A stretch of 64,000 nucleotides of DNA, from contig NZ_JARGZF010000002.1 in assembly GCF_029222705.1 (NCBI RefSeq), positions 558,001-622,000 of the forward strand, given 5' to 3'. Positions 591 to 64,000 of the stretch are shown here, one piece after another. The notes under the pieces are model-generated. The model was not told the origin of the DNA. It did not search any database and saw only the letters and a list, made by a program, of their open reading frames with translations. A program made the translations under genes and the position numbers. Origin of the DNA: Knoellia sp. p5-6-4. Its GTDB lineage: Bacteria > Actinomycetota > Actinomycetes > Actinomycetales > Dermatophilaceae. Every line of letters starts with the position of its first letter. The stretch's first letter is position 1.

Positions 591-1363
591 CAGCTGGCCC
601 CGGGGTGCGACCGGGCGATGTGCTGCATCTCCGCGAGGAGGTAGCCCATGGGGCGCGAGTGGATGCCGTCGCGGCCTCCGCGGCTGCGCCACCTCGGCGT
701 CTCGGGCAGCTCCAGCGTCGCCTGCGCCACCACAGCGGCGATCCGGGCGGTGCAGGCCTCGTGGAGGGTCGACGGCAGCACCCCGATACCGGTGTCGGCA
801 GCAGCCCGCGCGGCCTCGTCGTCGTCGAACAGCTCGGTGACGTACGGCGCCACGGACTCCAGGCCCTCCTGCATCCTCCGGTGCGACTCGTCAGTGCCGT
901 CGCCGAGCCGGAGCACCCACTGCGTGGCGTGGTCGCGGTGGTAGGTGACCTCCTTGAGCGCCTTCTCGGCGACGCCGGCGAGCACCGGGTCGCTCGAGCG
1001 GCGCAGGGCGGCGTAGAGCTCGCACTGCCAGGTCGAGAACGTGAGCAGCCGGGCCATCTCGAAGCCGAACCCGTCGCGCTCCTGCTCGACGAGGTGGACG
1101 TTTCGGAACTCCCGCTCGTCGCGGAAGTAGGCCAGGTCGTCCTCGGACCGGCCGGTGCCGTCGAGCTCGCCCACGCGGGTCAGCAGGGCACGGGCCTGCC
1201 CGAGCAGGTCGAGGCCGACGTTGCCGAGCGCCATGTCCTCCTCGATCTGCGGGGCGCGCGAGATCCACTCGCCGAGCCGCTGCGCGTAGACGAGGGCGTC
1301 GTCGGCCAGGCCCTGGATGTACTGCGCCGCAACAGGGTTCGCGGCCACCAGCGACTCACCCAT
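587..1363 (-). CDS. paaC: 1,2-phenylacetyl-CoA epoxidase structural subunit PaaC
   Basis: Predicted 258-residue ferritin-like helical protein. In this family PaaC forms the heterodimeric core with PaaA and is structural, not catalytic. The sequence shows the expected helices (EEDMALGNVGLDLLGQAR, FEMARLLTFSTWQCELYAAL, LKEVTYHRDHATQWVLRLGDGT). Its ATG shares one base with the paaB stop (TGATG), and its own stop overlaps the paaD start, so A-B-C-D are translationally coupled in one operon. Confidence 0.95.
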   Translation of the reverse strand: MGESLVAANPVAAQYIQGLADDALVYAQRLGEWISRAPQIEEDMALGNVGLDLLGQARALLTRVGELDGTGRSEDDLAYFRDEREFRNVHLVEQERDGFGFEMARLLTFSTWQCELYAALRRSSDPVLAGVAEKALKEVTYHRDHATQWVLRLGDGTDESHRRMQEGLESVAPYVTELFDDDEAARAAADTGIGVLPSTLHEACTARIAAVVAQATLELPETPRWRSRGGRDGIHSRPMGYLLAEMQHIARSHPGASW

Positions 1364-1671
1364 CAGAGGTACTCCACGTCCTCGGGCACGTCGTAGAACG
1401 TGGGGTGGCGGTAGACCTTGTCGGCCGCCGGGTCGAAGAAGGAGTCGCGCTCGTCCGGGCTCGACGCGGTGATGTCGGCCGCCTTGACCACCCAGAGCGA
1501 GACTCCCTCCTGGCGTCGGGTGTAGACGTCACGGGCGTTGCGCAGGGCCATCGTCGCGTCGGGCGCGTGCAGCGACCCGACGTGCACGTGCGACAGGCCA
1601 CGCTTGCCGCGGACGAAGACCTCCCACAGCGGCCACGACTTCTCGTCGCCCACACCGTTCTCCGTGCTCAC
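1363..1671 (-). CDS. paaB: 1,2-phenylacetyl-CoA epoxidase subunit PaaB
   Basis: Predicted 102-residue subunit ([28 protein letters not shown], then ..[20 protein letters not shown]), the usual length and sequence of PaaB, a small component that bridges PaaAC units. The start is a GTG at 1671 overlapping the paaA stop as GTGA. The frame remains open upstream inside paaA, but the PaaB homology begins exactly at this GTG. Confidence 0.95.
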
Positions 1672-2690
1672 GCGGCACTCCCCTGACGCTCGCGCCCGGC
1701 CTGCTTGGCGGCATACGCGGTGGCAGCCTCGCGCACCCAGGCACCGTCCTCGTGGGCGGCGCGGCGGTGGGCGATGCGCTCGGCGTTGCACGGCCCGTCG
1801 CCCTTGAGCACGCGCCAGAACTCGTCCCAGTCGATGGGGCCGAAGTCGTAGTGGCCGCGCTCCTCGTTCCACCGCAGGTCGGGGTCGGGCAGCACGATGC
1901 CGAGCTTCTCCGCCTGCGGCACCATCATGTCGACGAACTTCTGGCGCAGGTCGTCGTTGGCGAACCGCTTGATGCCCCAAGCCATCGACTGCTCGGTGTG
2001 CCCGCCGGCCTTGGCCGCCTCACCGGTGTCGGGCGGCCCGAACATCATCAGGGCCGGCCACCACCAGCGGTTCGCCGCGTCCTGGGCCATCGCCTTCTGG
2101 GCGTCCGTGCCGCGCATGAGCGTCCAGAGGATCTCGAAGCCCTGGCGCTGGTGGAACGACTCCTCCTTGCAGACGCGGATCATCGCCCGGGCGTAGGGGC
2201 CGTAGGAGCAGCGGCACAGCGGCACCTGGTTCATGATCGCTGCACCGTCGACGAGCCACCCGATCGCGCCGCAGTCGGCCCACGTGAGGGTCGGGTAGTT
2301 GAAGATCGAGGAGTACTTCTGCTTCCCCGAGTGCAGCCGGTCGAGCAGCTCCTGCCGGTCGACCCCGAGGGTCTCCGCGGCGCTGTAGAGGTACAGCCCG
2401 TGGCCCGCCTCGTCCTGCACCTTGGCCATGAGGATCGCCTTGCGACGCAGGCTGGGCGCGCGGGTGATCCAGTTGCCCTCCGGCTGCATGCCGATGATCT
2501 CGGAGTGCGCGTGCTGGGCGATCTGGCGGATCAGCGTCTGGCGGTAGGCGTCGGGCATCTCGTCGCGCGGCTCGATGCGCTGGTCGGCCTCGATGAGGTC
2601 GTCGAACAGGCCCGACTCGGCGGCGTTGAGCGGCTCGTCGGGGTTCGGCAGGGCGTGGTCCGCCTCGGGGCCGAAGTCGTTGCCGTACAT
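1668..2690 (-). CDS. paaA: 1,2-phenylacetyl-CoA epoxidase catalytic subunit PaaA
   Basis: Predicted 340-residue di-iron monooxygenase subunit that activates O2 and epoxidises the ring of phenylacetyl-CoA. Iron-ligand helices are visible: the [15 protein letters not shown] helix near residue 60, [17 protein letters not shown] near 95, and [15 protein letters not shown] near 175 (ExxH-type ligands). It is the first gene of the operon. The ATG lies about 6 nt downstream of a plausible -10 hexamer (CATACT), so the mRNA may be nearly leaderless. The GGAGG just before the ATG is only 1 nt away, too close to act as a normal ribosome-binding site. Confidence 0.96.
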
Positions 2691-2774: not shown

Positions 2775-3380
2775 GTGGACGCCCACGAGCACGCGCACCC
2801 GCACCCCACCCACGAGCACGAGGCCGCGACCGGCCCGGTGGCCGACGCCAGCGTGCGCCTCGCCCGGGAGAGCGACGCCCCCGCGGTCGGCCTGGTGCAG
2901 GCCACCGTGTGGAGGCAGGCGTATGCCGACGTGGTGCCGGCCGACGTCCTCGCCACCTTCGAGCCCGCCGCCTTCGCCAAGGCGTGGCGCACCTCGCTGG
3001 CAAACCCGCCGGAGGGCGTCCACCGGTTGCTGGCTGCCTGTGCGGGCGAGCAGGTGGTCGGGTTCGCGGCGATCGGCCCGAGCCAGGACCCCGACGCGTC
3101 GCCGCTCACCGGTGAGCTCACCGCCATCGGGGTCCACCCGCAGGCCCGCCGGGCCGGGCACGGGTCGCGCCTGCTCAACGCCGCCGTCGACACGTTGCGC
3201 GGTGCCGGCGCCGAGTCGCTGCACACCTGGCTGCTCGCCACCGACGAGGACACCAGGGCCTTCTTCGCCCGGGCCGGGCTGTCCCCGGACGGCGCCTTCC
3301 GCGACCGCGTGGTCTCCCCCGACGGCCGGACGGCCCGCGAGGTGAGGCTGGTGGCGGCCATCGGCGCAACGGGACCGTGA
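2775..3380 (+). CDS. GNAT-family N-acetyltransferase with His-rich N-terminus
   Basis: Predicted 201-residue acetyltransferase. The GNAT core starts near residue 23 (VRLARESDAPAVGLV). The acetyl-CoA motif is at LTAIGVHPQARRAGHGSRLL, followed by the FFARAGL segment typical of the fold. The first 16 residues carry six histidines (AHEHAHPHPTHEHE), perhaps metal-binding or just low complexity. The GTG at 2775 is favoured by GAGG 8 nt upstream. The stop overlaps the azlC start as GTGA, so it is probably the first gene of an azlCD operon. The substrate cannot be told from sequence. Confidence 0.85.
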   Translation: MDAHEHAHPHPTHEHEAATGPVADASVRLARESDAPAVGLVQATVWRQAYADVVPADVLATFEPAAFAKAWRTSLANPPEGVHRLLAACAGEQVVGFAAIGPSQDPDASPLTGELTAIGVHPQARRAGHGSRLLNAAVDTLRGAGAESLHTWLLATDEDTRAFFARAGLSPDGAFRDRVVSPDGRTAREVRLVAAIGATGP

Positions 3381-4180
3381 CGACCCTCGACCCTGCTCGG
3401 CGGCGCGCCGTGCAGCGCCAGGCGCTTTCGGTCGGCATCGCCACCGGCGCCTACGGCATCAGCTTCGGCGCCCTGTCGACCGCGGCCGGGCTCGACATCC
3501 TGCAGACCCAGGCGCTGTCCCTCCTGTTGTTCTCCGGCGGCTCCCAGTTCGCCTTCGTCGGCCTGGTCGCCGGAGGGCTCGCCGGCGCACCCGCGGCGAT
3601 CGCCACCTCGACCCTGCTCGGCGCCAGGAACGGCCTGTACGGGCTGCAGGTGGCCAGGATGCTCGACGTCCGCGGCCTGCGGCGCGCTGCCGCCGCGCAC
3701 CTGACGATCGACGAGTCCACCGCGGTCGGGGTGGCCCAGCCCGAGGAGCGGGCGGCTCGGCTGGGCTTCTGGGCCACGGGCATCGCGGTCCTCGTCCTGT
3801 GGAACCTCATGACCCTGGTGGGCGCCCTCGTCGGCGACGCCATCGGCGACCCGAAGACCTACGGGCTCGACGCGGCGGCCGCGGCGGCCTTCTGCGGCCT
3901 GCTGTGGCCGCGGCTGAAGTCGAGGGACGCCTTCGCGATCGCGGCCCTGGCCGCCCTGGTGGCCGTGCTCTTGGCCCCGCACGCCCCCGCCGGCGTGCCC
4001 GTGCTGGTCGCTGCGCTCACGGCACTGGTCGGGGCCGTGTGGCCGACGGCGCACCGCGACCCCGCACCGCCCCACCACTGGTCCGACGAGAGCGCGCCGC
4101 CCTCCGCTGAGCACGTACCCGGGTCCGGCCCCCCTCCCTCCTCGCCCGAGGGGCCACACGCGAGGAGGGAGCAGCCGTGA
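3377..4180 (+). CDS. azlC: AzlC-family amino-acid exporter large subunit
   Basis: Predicted 267-residue integral membrane protein. AzlC with AzlD exports branched-chain amino acids or related compounds. The family signature GAYGISFGALSTAAGLDILQTQALSLLLFSGGSQFAFVG is in the first 60 residues, followed by about six further hydrophobic segments. The last 40 residues are a polar, proline-rich tail (APPHHWSDESAPPSAEHVPGSG), longer than usual. The start GTG overlaps the upstream acetyltransferase stop, and the stop overlaps azlD, so the three are cotranscribed. Confidence 0.9.
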   Translation: MTTLDPARRRAVQRQALSVGIATGAYGISFGALSTAAGLDILQTQALSLLLFSGGSQFAFVGLVAGGLAGAPAAIATSTLLGARNGLYGLQVARMLDVRGLRRAAAAHLTIDESTAVGVAQPEERAARLGFWATGIAVLVLWNLMTLVGALVGDAIGDPKTYGLDAAAAAAFCGLLWPRLKSRDAFAIAALAALVAVLLAPHAPAGVPVLVAALTALVGAVWPTAHRDPAPPHHWSDESAPPSAEHVPGSGPPPSSPEGPHARREQP

Positions 4181-4491
4181 CCATGTGGACGGCGGTCCTC
4201 ACCGCGAGCGCCCTGGCCTTCGCCCTGAAGTTCCTCGGCTACGTGGTGCCGGCCGGTTGGCTCGAGGGACCGCGGACCAGCCGGGTCACCTCGGCGCTGC
4301 CGATCGCGCTGCTGTCGGCCCTGGTGGCGGTGCAGACCCTCACCGGCGAGGGAGGCGGCCTCGTGGTCGACGCCCGTCTCGCCGCCGTCCTGGTGGCGAT
4401 GGCGGCGCTGGCCCTGCGGGCCCCCTTCCTGCTCGTCGTGACCCTCGCCGCGGTGACGGCAGCCCTGCTGCGCGCGGCCGGCTGGGGCTGA
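4177..4491 (+). CDS. azlD: AzlD-family amino-acid exporter small subunit
   Basis: Predicted 104-residue protein with four hydrophobic segments and the AzlD-like LKFLGYVVPAGWLEGPRTSRVTSALPIALLSALVA region. It pairs with AzlC to form the export channel. The GTG start overlaps the azlC stop (GTGA). The next gene begins 4 nt after its stop, so the transcript probably continues. Confidence 0.9.
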   Translation: MTMWTAVLTASALAFALKFLGYVVPAGWLEGPRTSRVTSALPIALLSALVAVQTLTGEGGGLVVDARLAAVLVAMAALALRAPFLLVVTLAAVTAALLRAAGWG

Positions 4492-4495
4492 CCCG

Positions 4496-5743
4496 GTGTC
4501 GACCCCCCGGTCGGAGCAGGGACGCAGTGGACCGGGCCGCCGGGACGCCCGTCTCGCCTCGCGCCTGGTCGGCATCGACGTGGCCCGGTGCGTGGCCCTG
4601 CTCGGGATGATGGCCACCCACATCCTCAACCCGGTCGACGCCTCTGGCCGCCTCGCGTGGCCCCAGGCCGTGGCCGGGGGCCGGTCCTCGGCGCTGTTCG
4701 CCGTCCTGGCCGGGGTCTCGCTGTCCCTGATGACCGGGCGGCAGCGCCCTCACACGGGGACGCGGCGGCTGGGTGATGCCGCGGGGCTGGCGGCCCGGGC
4801 CCTGGTCATCGCCCTGGTGGGGCTGTGGCTGGGCCAGCTCGACACCCGGGTCGCCGTCATCCTCGTCTACTACGCCGTCCTCTTCCTCCTCGGCCTGCCG
4901 TTCCTGGGGCAGTCGGCGGGCACCCTGCTGGCCCTGGCCGGCTGGTGGTGCCTGGCCGCCCCGGTCGCCTCGCACGTGGTCCGTCAGGCGTGGGGGCCAC
5001 AGCCGGCCACGGTGCCGACCACGGCCAGCGTCGATGCGCTCGGTGCGACCCTCGTCGACCTCCTGCTCACCGGCTACTACCCGGCCATCCCATGGTTGAC
5101 CTACCTGCTGGCGGGAATGGCGATCGGCCGCCTCGACCTGCGCAGCAACGCCGTGGCGACCCGCATCCTCGCGGGCGGCTGCGGCACTGCCCTGGCCGCC
5201 TGGGGGCTGTCCTGGGCCCTGACCTCGCTGTCAACAGCGCAGCAGGCCATGGTCACGAGCTCGCCCGGCGCAGCCTCCTGGGACGAGGTGGCCCACCGCA
5301 TCGCTCTCGGCATGGGCGGCACGACCCCCACCGACACGTGGTGGTGGCTGGCAGTGGCGGCACCGCACTCGGCCACCCCGCTCGACCTGGCCCACACGGC
5401 CGGTACCGCAGCCGCGGTGATCGGTGCCGCCCTGCTGCTCTCCCGGGCGGTGCAGGCCACCCGCTGGACGGGCGCCGCCTGGGCCACCCTCTTCGGCGCC
5501 GGCGCGATGACCCTGACGCTCTACAGCCTGCACGTCGTGCTGCTCACGCCGGGCCGCTGGCCCGAGCCGACGCCCGCCAACTACACCCGGCACGCCCTGC
5601 TGGCCCTGGCCGTCGGGGCCGCCTTCACCCTGGCCGGCCGTCGTGGCCCGCTCGAGGCGGTGGCGCGCTGGGCGGCGGCCCAGGCTCGGCGCGCGGTCGT
5701 CCGCGGCCCGGCCGTGCCGACGGGGGACGGCCTGACCCGCTGA
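4496..5743 (+). CDS. Multispanning acyltransferase-like membrane protein (HGSNAT/DUF1624-DUF418 type)
   Basis: Predicted 415-residue membrane protein with about ten hydrophobic segments. The N-terminus has RLVGIDVARCVALLGMMATHIL, the Gly-(I/L)-D-x-x-R-G-like opening seen in the heparan-alpha-glucosaminide acetyltransferase catalytic domain and in DUF418 proteins. Such proteins move acyl groups across or at the membrane; the substrate here is unknown. The start is GTG, 4 nt after azlD. The first 20 residues are polar, so the start could lie slightly later. Confidence 0.75.
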   Translation: MSTPRSEQGRSGPGRRDARLASRLVGIDVARCVALLGMMATHILNPVDASGRLAWPQAVAGGRSSALFAVLAGVSLSLMTGRQRPHTGTRRLGDAAGLAARALVIALVGLWLGQLDTRVAVILVYYAVLFLLGLPFLGQSAGTLLALAGWWCLAAPVASHVVRQAWGPQPATVPTTASVDALGATLVDLLLTGYYPAIPWLTYLLAGMAIGRLDLRSNAVATRILAGGCGTALAAWGLSWALTSLSTAQQAMVTSSPGAASWDEVAHRIALGMGGTTPTDTWWWLAVAAPHSATPLDLAHTAGTAAAVIGAALLLSRAVQATRWTGAAWATLFGAGAMTLTLYSLHVVLLTPGRWPEPTPANYTRHALLALAVGAAFTLAGRRGPLEAVARWAAAQARRAVVRGPAVPTGDGLTR

Positions 5744-61436: not shown

Positions 61437-62408
61437 ATGCGAAGAACCTCTTCCCTGCGCCTGGCCATCGTGGGGGCCGCTGCAGCGGCCGTCCTGGCCA
61501 CCGGCGCCGCTTCCGGCGCGGTGAGCGCCGCCCCGACCGGCGCAGCCTCTGCGGGCGCAGCAGCCTGCGAACCCGGCAGCACGCTGAGCACTGCTGCCCG
61601 CGTCGCCGACGGCGCCACCGCGCAGGAGCCGAAGCTCTACCCGGACAACGAGGCCAATGCCTACGGGGTCCTGCCCGACTCGGCCTACCTCGGCGACGGG
61701 AACGTCGAGGTCGAGACGGTCTTCCACTCCATCTCGGACCACCCCCTGACCGCGGCCGAGAAGCAGCGGATGACGACCATGATCAACGACCAGATGGACG
61801 TCCTCAACGCCGCGTTCTCTGGTCAGACCGCACCGGCCGCCGCGGACACCCCGTTCAGGTTCTCGCTGGCCAAGATCAACTGGGTCGTGGACCCCAGCTG
61901 GTACACCGTGGTGCCCGGCAAGAACGAGCGTGACATGAAGGCGGCCCTCCACGAAGGCGACTCCCGAACGCTCAACGTCTACTCCGCCGACATCGGCGGC
62001 GGGCTGCTCGGCTGGGCCTACTTCCCCAAGGGCTACAACAACGGCCGCGACTACATCGACGGCGTGGTGCTGCTCGACGAGTCGATGCCCGGTGGCACGG
62101 CGGGCAAGTACGCCCTCGGCGACACCCTGACGCACGAGGTCGGCCACTGGCTGATGCTGGAGCACACCTTCGCCCACGGCTGCTCGGCCTCGGGCGACTA
62201 CGTCGCCGACACCCCGAAGGAGGCCCAGCCGCAGTTCAACTGCCCGGTGGGAGCCGACACCTGCGCCGCGCCGGGCAACGACCCGATCCACAACTTCATG
62301 GACTACACGCAGGACTCGTGCATGGACATGTTCACGCGCGGCCAGGCCGAGCGGATGAGCGACGCGTGGGTGGCGTTCCGCGCCAGTGGGGCCGGAAGCA
62401 AGGGCTGA
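61437..62408 (+). CDS. Secreted M43 (pappalysin-like) zinc metalloprotease
   Basis: Predicted 323-residue exported protease. Signal peptide (1-35), then a pro-like segment, then the catalytic domain with the extended zinc motif HEVGHWLMLEHTFAHGC and the Met-turn region NFMDYTQDSCMDMFTRGQAERM. Cysteines near the end (CSASGDY, FNCPVGADTC) suggest disulfides. The ATG at 61437 has GGAAGG upstream. Followed by a perfect terminator. Confidence 0.88.
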   Translation: MRRTSSLRLAIVGAAAAAVLATGAASGAVSAAPTGAASAGAAACEPGSTLSTAARVADGATAQEPKLYPDNEANAYGVLPDSAYLGDGNVEVETVFHSISDHPLTAAEKQRMTTMINDQMDVLNAAFSGQTAPAAADTPFRFSLAKINWVVDPSWYTVVPGKNERDMKAALHEGDSRTLNVYSADIGGGLLGWAYFPKGYNNGRDYIDGVVLLDESMPGGTAGKYALGDTLTHEVGHWLMLEHTFAHGCSASGDYVADTPKEAQPQFNCPVGADTCAAPGNDPIHNFMDYTQDSCMDMFTRGQAERMSDAWVAFRASGAGSKG

Positions 62409-62634: not shown

Positions 62635-62708
62635 GCGGGTGTAGCTCAATGGTAGAGCCCCAGTCTTCCAAACTGGCTACGCGAGTTCGATTCTCGTCAC
62701 CCGCTCCA
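62635..62708 (+). tRNA. tRNA-Gly (anticodon TCC)
   Basis: 74-nt cloverleaf: acceptor GCGGGTG with CACCCGC, D arm TAGCTCAATGGTAGAGC, anticodon arm CCAGT-CTTCCAA-ACTGG giving UCC, T arm GCGAG-TTCGATT-CTCGT, and encoded CCA. It borders the integrated element. Confidence 0.97.
62680..62708 (+). other. Probable attachment site (attL) in the 3' end of tRNA-Gly
   Basis: An integrase-like gene begins 115 nt to the right and is transcribed toward this tRNA, the usual arrangement when a tyrosine recombinase has used the tRNA 3' end. The exact core cannot be fixed without the other end of the element. Confidence 0.5.
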
Positions 62709-62780: not shown

Positions 62781-62799
62781 CGTGCCCACTACGTGCCCA
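62781..62799. repeat. Direct repeat CGTGCCCA, candidate integrase arm sites
   Basis: CGTGCCCA at 62781-62788 and 62792-62799, an 11-bp period, between the attachment site and the integrase gene. That is where arm-type sites of tyrosine integrases usually lie. Confidence 0.5.
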
Positions 62800-62822: not shown

Positions 62823-64000
62823 TCACGAGGCCCTGTCGGACTCATCGACGAGGTCCTCAACTCGCTCCACGAGCAGGTTCAGGGCGTCTGCGATGACCCG
62901 GTCCCGATCTGCGGTGCGGTGCTGGTAGATCAGCGCGGCCCGCATGCTCGAGTGGCCCATCCGCCCCATGAGCTCGCGTGTCGAGGCGCCCGTGGCAGCG
63001 GCCAGGTGGTTCCCGGTGTGGCGGAAGTCGTGGAAGTGGACCGCTTCCGAGATGTCAGCCTCGACGCGGGCCCGCTTCCAGCCCTGGGAGAAGTGGCTGC
63101 GGCGCGGGGACGAGCCCTTCGGCCCCACGAACAACCGGCCGTCATCTCCCGGTTCGGCGTAACGCTGGAGGTGGTCGACCAGCTCGTCAGCGACCCACCG
63201 AGGCAGTGCGACGGTTCGCGTTCCGGCGGCTGTCTTGGGTGCCTTCACGACCAGCGACCCATTGACCTCGGCCACCGCACGTCGGACGTGCAGCCGCGCC
63301 CCAGCCAGGTCGAGATCCGCCCGGGTCAGTCCCAGGAGCTCGCCGTAACGAAGGGATCCGAAGACGGCCAGGAGCACCATGGCCCGGTAGCGATGCTCGA
63401 TGACGCCAGCGAGGCGAAAGACCTCGTCAAGCGCGAGCACAGGCCGTTCGGGTGTCCGGTCAACGCTCGCTCCCTTGATCCGGCACGGATTCCGCACGAT
63501 GACCTCGTCGTCGACGGCCGTGGCGAAGATGGATCGCACCAACCGATAGGCCTTCGACGTCGTGCTCTGACCCAGTCCGCCATCGATGAGCCCCTGTCTC
63601 CAACCGCGGATCGGCGGACAGGTGCGCTTGGCGCCGCCCGGAACCAGTTCCAGCACAAGGGCATGCAGCTGGTTGACCTTGTACGTGTGCTCCTGCCCGA
63701 TGGCACGGTGCCGGTCGACCAGGATCCGCAGCACCTCCCGCTGCGCGTCGGGGACCACCGGCCGCAGCCCGGTCATCCGGGTGCCGACCAAGGCGACCGA
63801 GTGGGCGTCCGTGGCGTCGGCCTTGCGGCCCTGCCCGGTGGCGAACACCCGGGCGCGGGCCGACAGGGCCGGCGGCACATCGACGACTTGCTCACCTGCA
63901 GCGATGAGCCGGTTCGCGACATGCCGGCCGATCCCGTTGCAGCCCTCGACCGCCCACGTCCGCTCCGGCCACGCCTGGACGTGGGCGAGCATTGCCGCGA
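62823..64000 (-). CDS. Chimeric IS110-type transposase / tyrosine recombinase (5' end beyond window)
   Basis: One uninterrupted frame. The visible N-terminal 120 residues are an IS110-family DEDD domain (RTWAVEGCNGIGRHVANRL; KADATDAHSVAL with the DxxDA pair; RHRAIGQEHTYKVNQLHALVLELVPGG). From about residue 127 it is a tyrosine recombinase (RGWRQGL, SKAYRLVRSIFATAVDDEVI) with catalytic Arg in SLRYGELL, Lys in VVKAPKT, H-x-x-R in HDFRH, His in MGH and Tyr in LIYQH. The integrase N-terminal arm domain and the IS110 C-terminal domain are missing. The junction is near 63611-63640. Residues are counted from an internal ATG at 63992; the frame continues past the window edge with no stop. Confidence 0.8.
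   Translation of the reverse strand, partial: AAMLAHVQAWPERTWAVEGCNGIGRHVANRLIAAGEQVVDVPPALSARARVFATGQGRKADATDAHSVALVGTRMTGLRPVVPDAQREVLRILVDRHRAIGQEHTYKVNQLHALVLELVPGGAKRTCPPIRGWRQGLIDGGLGQSTTSKAYRLVRSIFATAVDDEVIVRNPCRIKGASVDRTPERPVLALDEVFRLAGVIEHRYRAMVLLAVFGSLRYGELLGLTRADLDLAGARLHVRRAVAEVNGSLVVKAPKTAAGTRTVALPRWVADELVDHLQRYAEPGDDGRLFVGPKGSSPRRSHFSQGWKRARVEADISEAVHFHDFRHTGNHLAAATGASTRELMGRMGHSSMRAALIYQHRTADRDRVIADALNLLVERVEDLVDESDRAS

What the first reader, a model, noticed from the sequence alone, without database searches (positions are those of the whole stretch)
62823..64000. In-frame fusion of an IS110 DEDD transposase domain to a tyrosine recombinase
The two halves belong to unrelated recombinase classes: a RuvC-like IS110 domain that acts with a bridge RNA, and a tyrosine integrase with the full R-K-H-R-H-Y set. 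The join is in frame, both parts read cleanly, and each half lacks the piece the other would replace. It may be scar from an IS110 insertion or deletion that happened to stay open, or a working hybrid. Both would be unusual. An intact catalytic tyrosine domain with a foreign N-terminus could have new DNA specificity.
Basis: partly seen in the sequence, partly recalled or inferred. Interest (0 to 1): 0.72.

Follow-up and report, generated by a model that had tools for sequence, protein, structure and literature searches.

The report
Chimeric scar gene in decayed element
A jumping-gene enzyme and a phage-type integrase appear joined in one reading frame, but related genomes suggest that this is the scar of a deletion inside a decaying mobile element: real, but most likely without a function.

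Summary
The chimeric frame is real: 435 codons, window 62823 to 64130, past the window edge. It joins about 169 residues of an IS110 transposase (whole RuvC/DEDD domain; Tnp domain with its catalytic serine lost) to the last 262 residues of a tyrosine integrase (whole catalytic domain; N-terminal part and half of the central DNA-binding domain lost).

It lies in a 4.5-kb element between 95-bp repeats of a tRNA-Gly 3' end. Eight related integrase loci in other genomes, also beside tRNA-Gly, have an excisionase-like gene upstream of int; five also have a pSAM2-type RepSA gene. One of these elements carries a relative of this IS110 upstream of rep-xis-int, same orientation. Here rep, xis, the integrase N-terminus and the IS110 3' half are missing and the IS110 left end is kept. 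One deletion from inside the IS110 gene into int would explain this (inferred). IS110 relatives have one base more just before the join, so the frame is open only through a 1-nt shortfall.

No second copy was found in 186 family genomes, a class sample, plasmids, phages, viral contigs or a scan of species genomes. A working hybrid is very unlikely, though untested.

The parts
62635..62708 (+). tRNA-Gly (anticodon TCC), the attachment gene
   Evidence: ARAGORN on L008 2636-2709; Rfam tRNA 70.7 bits
62665..62759 (+). left attachment repeat: 95 bp of tRNA-Gly 3' end and downstream; the second copy (99%) is at L008 7158-7252, outside the window
62782..62799 (+). GTGCCCACTACGTGCCCA, proposed arm-type site of the integrase; second exact copy at L008 7055-7072 near the other end
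   Evidence: two exact copies; with up to 2 mismatches 0.33 expected, 8 of 200 shuffles had 2 or more. Pattern present in 7 of 9 integrase loci then held from the family. Role inferred
62823..63611 (-). integrase-derived part of the chimeric frame: second half of the central domain and the catalytic domain
   Evidence: PF00589; about 53-63% protein identity to intact integrases from aa 174 on
63611..63624 (-). join zone: IS110 homology ends about 63612; the 1-nt shortfall against IS110 relatives lies about 63624
63612..64000 (-). IS110-derived part of the chimeric frame (continues past the window to the GTG at 64130; intact IS110 left end at about 64354-64360)
   Evidence: PF01548; DNA homology to many IS110 copies from L008 about 4355 to about 3613

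Best explanation
A chimeric pseudogene left by a deletion in a decayed pSAM2-like integrative element at tRNA-Gly. An IS110 had inserted upstream of, and in the same orientation as, the element's rep-xis-int genes. One illegitimate deletion then ran from inside the IS110 transposase gene to inside int and took out the transposase's Tnp domain and the right end of the IS, rep, xis and the N-terminal DNA-binding part of the integrase. A 1-nt shortfall beside the join leaves the frame open by chance. If the protein is made from the kept IS110 start it should neither transpose nor bind the arm sites, so the element with its chromate transporter gene is stranded. Shown: which parts are present and missing, the frame, the arrangement in relatives, absence of a second copy in the sets searched. 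Inferred: that one deletion did it, the order of events, the arm sites, and the lack of function.
For: Att repeats of tRNA-Gly round the element. IS110 left end intact, 17 relatives' homology starting at the same base with unrelated flanks; homology stops at the join. Intact relatives of the integrase have central-domain models across and upstream of the join point; intact IS110 relatives have Transposase_20, lost here. 8 of 8 related integrase loci have an xis-like gene upstream of int and 5 of 8 a RepSA gene; L008 has neither. In G177 a relative of this IS110 lies inside the same kind of element, upstream of rep-xis-int, same orientation. The 1-nt shortfall. No remnant of the lost pieces in the element. 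Mutation of the Tnp serine or of the DEDD residues abolishes IS621 recombination (PMC11208158, passages).
Against: No sister element with the same cargo and an undeleted IS110-rep-xis-int was found in 186 family genomes, so the deletion is not seen directly, and the IS110 flank in G177 is not homologous to the one here. The integrase half is not visibly decayed: 1 change at 51 otherwise invariant positions, relatives 0 to 3 of 50-53. The ribosome-binding site and start are kept. The breakpoint cannot be fixed to the base.
Confidence: 0.92

Rival explanations
1. A working hybrid recombinase: the IS110 RuvC half, perhaps with the bridge RNA expected in the kept left end, gives the integrase catalytic domain a new DNA- or RNA-binding partner.
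For: Both sets of catalytic residues are present; start and ribosome-binding site kept; integrase half without excess changes at conserved columns; left end about 80-88% alike to intact IS110 copies.
Against: Tnp domain with the serine lost; about half of the integrase central domain and all of the N-terminal part lost; frame open only through an indel; no second copy; IS110 half has 3 changes at 68 otherwise invariant positions against 0 to 6 in relatives.
Confidence: 0.03
2. An assembly or base-calling error at the join: either the join itself or the missing base is not in the organism.
For: No reads were available; the shortfall lies within 15 nt of the join.
Against: The join is inside a 1.23-Mb contig of a genome with 99.88% completeness; the further matches of the chimera in this genome are five integrase-half matches and no IS110 that could have been mis-joined; the shortfall is not in a homopolymer.
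Confidence: 0.04
3. IS110 inserted directly into int and the element later lost its right part.
For: IS110 sequence abuts int sequence.
Against: No integrase N-terminal remnant beyond the IS110 left end: best tblastn E 0.049, outside the element; the rest 0.29 or worse. Needs a further deletion to remove that piece.
Confidence: 0.05

Closest known systems
Actinomycete integrative and conjugative elements of the pSAM2 type (AICEs; PMC3218068, passages only)
   Same: Tyrosine integrase gene beside a tRNA 3' end used as attachment site; related loci carry RepSA and an excisionase-like gene upstream of int.
   Different: Here rep and xis are absent and int is truncated and joined to an IS110 fragment; 4.5 kb against about 11-21 kb in five relatives. 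Transfer genes were not searched for.
IS110 family elements with bridge RNA (PMC11208160 and PMC11208158, passages only)
   Same: Complete RuvC/DEDD domain and a conserved non-coding left end of about 225 nt.
   Different: No Tnp domain, no catalytic serine, no right end: a fragment.
Tyrosine site-specific recombinases of integrative elements
   Same: Complete catalytic domain with the residue set by motif.
   Different: No N-terminal part, about half of the central (core-binding) domain, foreign N-terminus.

Membership tests
IS110 element (functional) | RuvC-like domain with DEDD | tested here: met
   PF01548 over 155 of 155 positions; residues by motif
IS110 element (functional) | Tnp domain (Transposase_20) with catalytic serine | tested here: not met
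   No PF02371 in the chimera; present in relatives L019 and L026; no remnant in L008, best E 0.15
IS110 element (functional) | Both non-coding ends | tested here: not met
   Left end present; homology stops inside the gene, no right end
IS110 element (functional) | Bridge RNA with target and donor loops | not tested
   Left end is conserved in sequence, but no RNA model was built
Functional tyrosine integrase | Catalytic domain with R-K-H-R-H-Y | tested here: met
   PF00589; residues by motif
Functional tyrosine integrase | Complete core-binding domain and N-terminal part | tested here: not met
   Models PF14659 and PF22022 upstream of and across the join in L017, L018, L024 have no match in the chimera
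pSAM2-like AICE | tRNA attachment site with direct repeats | tested here: met
pSAM2-like AICE | RepSA-type replication gene and excisionase gene | tested here: not met
   No match in L008 (best E 0.34 and 0.26); present in relatives. Hence filed as a remnant, by relationship of its integrase
pSAM2-like AICE | Transfer (tra) gene | not tested
   Not searched for

The most novel reading that the evidence does not exclude
The chimeric protein is made and keeps some function: for example the catalytic domain, led by an IS110 RuvC domain that still binds a bridge RNA from the kept left end, cuts or joins the tRNA-Gly core site, or interferes with incoming elements of the same kind.
Probability: 0.03. 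Interest if true: 0.6.

Novelty: new member of a known kind. Interest (0 to 1): 0.13.

Why it matters
It shows how two unrelated recombinase genes can look fused in an annotation although the most likely history is decay, and it is a readable case of an IS110 taking part in the loss of an integrative element's mobility. If a hybrid activity were found, it would be a natural combination of a RuvC-type and a tyrosine recombinase, but the evidence does not point there.

Tried and rejected
A second fusion. L018 (G177) looked like one in the table (query 102-430) but is an ordinary integrase whose upstream part aligned by chance. L045 (G069) aligned over query 9-322, but only its IS110 N-terminal part is a convincing match; Pfam finds no Transposase_20 and no integrase in it. 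A 34-base match in G160 that crosses the join (E 7.9e-4) lies just upstream of a 241-aa frame; none of the eight frames of 150 aa or more listed there reads as IS110 or integrase (by eye), so I took it as chance.

Remnants of the lost pieces in L008: integrase N-terminus best E 0.049 (outside the element), IS110 C-terminus best 0.15, rep 0.34, xis 0.26: none convincing. Rfam: only the two tRNAs are credible, one of them cut by the stretch and just below its gathering score; two further matches were far below theirs. Tandem repeats in L008 4360-7160: none. A sister element with the same cargo: not found; in 186 family genomes the listed long matches are seven chromate transporter genes at 69-73% identity, the listed others short (list truncated).

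Decay tests gave no clear answer (see full report). No bridge-RNA model was built.

Limits of the absence claim: the family search scored at most 9 candidates per genome and its match list was truncated; the class sample scored 4 per genome. Rows with query starts between about 121 and 168 were read as integrases matching through the central domain and, L018 apart, were not opened. The order sample was searched with the integrase half alone and does not test for the fusion. Fusions built from distant parts would be missed. Literature: 'IS110, tyrosine recombinase, fusion protein, chimeric' listed 2 papers, neither about such a fusion by title; 'IS110, integrase, truncated, fused in frame' listed 0. 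I make no wider claim about what is in print.

Full report
What is there. The window is G000:C2:558001-622000 of a 3.81-Mb genome in nine contigs. The frame runs past the window's right edge. In L008 (G000:C2:618000-632000; window position = L008 position + 59999) it spans 2824-4131 on the minus strand, 435 aa from a GTG with AAGGAG just upstream. Pfam places DEDD_Tnp_IS110 at aa 11-164 and Phage_integrase at aa 234-407. The catalytic residues of both are present by motif (assignment mine).

The element. A 95-bp direct repeat, 99% identical, of the 3' end of tRNA-Gly(TCC) and what follows it lies at L008 2666-2760 and 7158-7252. Near each copy, on the inner side, is GTGCCCACTACGTGCCCA (L008 2783-2800 and 7055-7072; two exact copies, where 0.33 are expected with up to two mismatches and 8 of 200 shuffles had two or more). 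The pattern occurs in 7 of the 9 integrase loci then held from the family (L017, L018, L020-L024, twice in L024; not in L042 or L043) and in none of L051-L055. I read it as an arm-type site; that is inference. Between the repeats lie the chimeric frame and a chromate transporter gene (L008 4742-6157; PF02417 E 2e-67, TIGR00937 214 bits against a cut-off of 172).

The IS110 half. DNA homology starts at the same base (L008 4355) in 17 loci of other genomes, and within 13 nt of it in three more. The flanks beyond differ while ACTTGTTTCATTGACG is shared by the five sequences printed. Two copies in G153, 99.93% alike over 1436 bp, put the end at about L008 4361. The homology stops at L008 about 3613. 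The best relative, L019 in G169, is 88% identical in protein over aa 1-169 and goes on into Transposase_20. So the left end and about 169 codons are kept; the Tnp domain and right end are lost. In IS621 the domains are RuvC 1-122, coiled coil 123-188 and Tnp 189-326, and mutation of a DEDD residue or of S241 in Tnp abolishes recombination (PMC11208158, passages). The other matches of the chimera in this genome are five integrase-half matches; no second IS110 was found.

The integrase half. Homology to intact integrases begins at about aa 170-174, with about 53-63% identity (L017, L018, L020-L024, L042, L043). In L017, L018 and L024 the models PF14659 and PF22022 lie upstream of and across that point. 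The chimera keeps roughly the second half of the central domain and all of the catalytic domain.

The join. IS110 relatives have 6 nt between the GGAK codons and CTGTC, the chimera 5 (25 of the 25 loci kept by the script's filter, 18 distinct places; six more rows by eye; L015 misaligned, not counted). In one search the relatives' stretches are one base longer than the query's, for example 67 bases against query 1-66 in G156, G169 and G158. After CTGTCCGCCG the sequence turns to integrase. Continued in the IS110 frame the DNA as it stands reads 53 codons from that CTG to a stop. The integrases of G155 and G158-G160 have a similar ACCT(G/C)TC near the matching place, so the breakpoint may lie a few bases to either side and the indel may belong to the integrase side. 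Either way the open frame depends on a small indel. A join is in frame by chance one time in three, so this says nothing for selection.

Relatives show the parts apart. Eight integrase loci in eight other genomes (L060-L067) all have an excisionase-like gene upstream of or overlapping the start of int, and five (L061-L065) a RepSA-like gene before that; L008 has neither. In G177 these are RepSA (E 7e-153) and HTH_17 (E 7e-10). All eight have a tRNA-Gly beside int. A second att repeat was found for five of six genomes searched (G155, G158, G159, G160, G177), giving lengths of about 11-21 kb; not for G007, where one search shows two att copies 1.7 kb apart. In G177 the element (C9 96523-117525) holds an open int and, upstream of rep and in the same orientation, a relative of this IS110 (76% DNA identity over 749 bp, its N-terminal part now in two frames). 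A deletion from such an IS110 into int would give what is seen here. The G177 flank is not homologous to ours, so it is a parallel, not the ancestor. Frankia AICEs mostly have the structure att-tra-rep-int-att (PMC3218068, passages).

A sister element was looked for and not found: with L008 4362-7150 as query, no other genome of 186 in the family gave a listed match over more than the chromate transporter region or short pieces (list truncated). The deletion is therefore inferred.

Decay. At columns invariant in all the other sequences the integrase half has 1 change of 51 (18 relatives: 0 to 3 of 50-53) and the IS110 half 3 of 68 (19 relatives: 0 to 6 of 64-71; the 6 is L045, itself truncated) (relatives with less coverage or identity than the script's limits, and identical sequences, were dropped). 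Polarised changes on the IS110 half are 9 amino-acid-changing and 9 silent; the nearest relative has 3 and 19, three others 7:9, 5:8 and 5:11. Against the nearest relative p is 0.018, against the four pooled 0.16. This neither shows nor excludes loss of constraint; a recent event would look like this, and so would a conserved catalytic domain.

Absence elsewhere. In 186 genomes of the family only the window's own genome has a listed match over both halves (list truncated); in the class sample likewise, 1 of 394, 106 of which had any match at E 1e-40. The 121-bp junction query matched 14 other family genomes of 186; 13 of them match only up to query position 71 at most, the IS110 side, and one, G160, has a short match across the join that I take as chance. 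Plasmids: 189 records matched, 0 with 80% coverage. Phages: 828 and 0. Viral contigs: 0 by protein and 0 by junction pattern. Species genomes: 2 loci, both IS110 side only.

Conclusion. It is most likely a chimeric pseudogene at the edge of a stranded pSAM2-like element. Interest is low; the untested possibility of activity is kept at 3%.

Noticed in passing
L008 4742-6157 (window coordinate about 64741-66156, outside the window): A chromate transporter gene is the only recognised cargo of the element.
   Followed up: partly
L008 4663-4712 and 6163-6212: A 50-nt direct repeat (76%) flanks the chromate transporter gene; its exact core GTCATGCCGAGTTGAG occurs only at these two places in the genome, also with one mismatch allowed.
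   Followed up: partly
L008 6853-7048: A stretch near the right att site recurs in other genomes of the family (87% in the congener G149, C7 214717-214912; also G145, G138, G158, G146, G168, G180, G182); its nature was not worked out.
   Followed up: partly
L045 (G069) 1012-2193 - strand and L034 (G113) 1324-2058 - strand: Two further open frames with an IS110 RuvC domain but no Transposase_20: truncated IS110 genes that stay open are not unique to this window.
   Followed up: partly
L088 (G177) about 4714-5204: The IS110 relative inside the G177 element reads in two frames in its N-terminal part, so it is probably broken too.
   Followed up: no
L060 (G007) 3614-5367: A minimal element: two att copies 1.7 kb apart with only int and an excisionase-like gene recognised between them.
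   Followed up: no
window 61437-62408, + strand: A 325-aa frame with HEVGHWLMLEHTF, by eye a zinc metalloprotease motif with a signal-like N-terminus; no family search was run on it.
   Followed up: no
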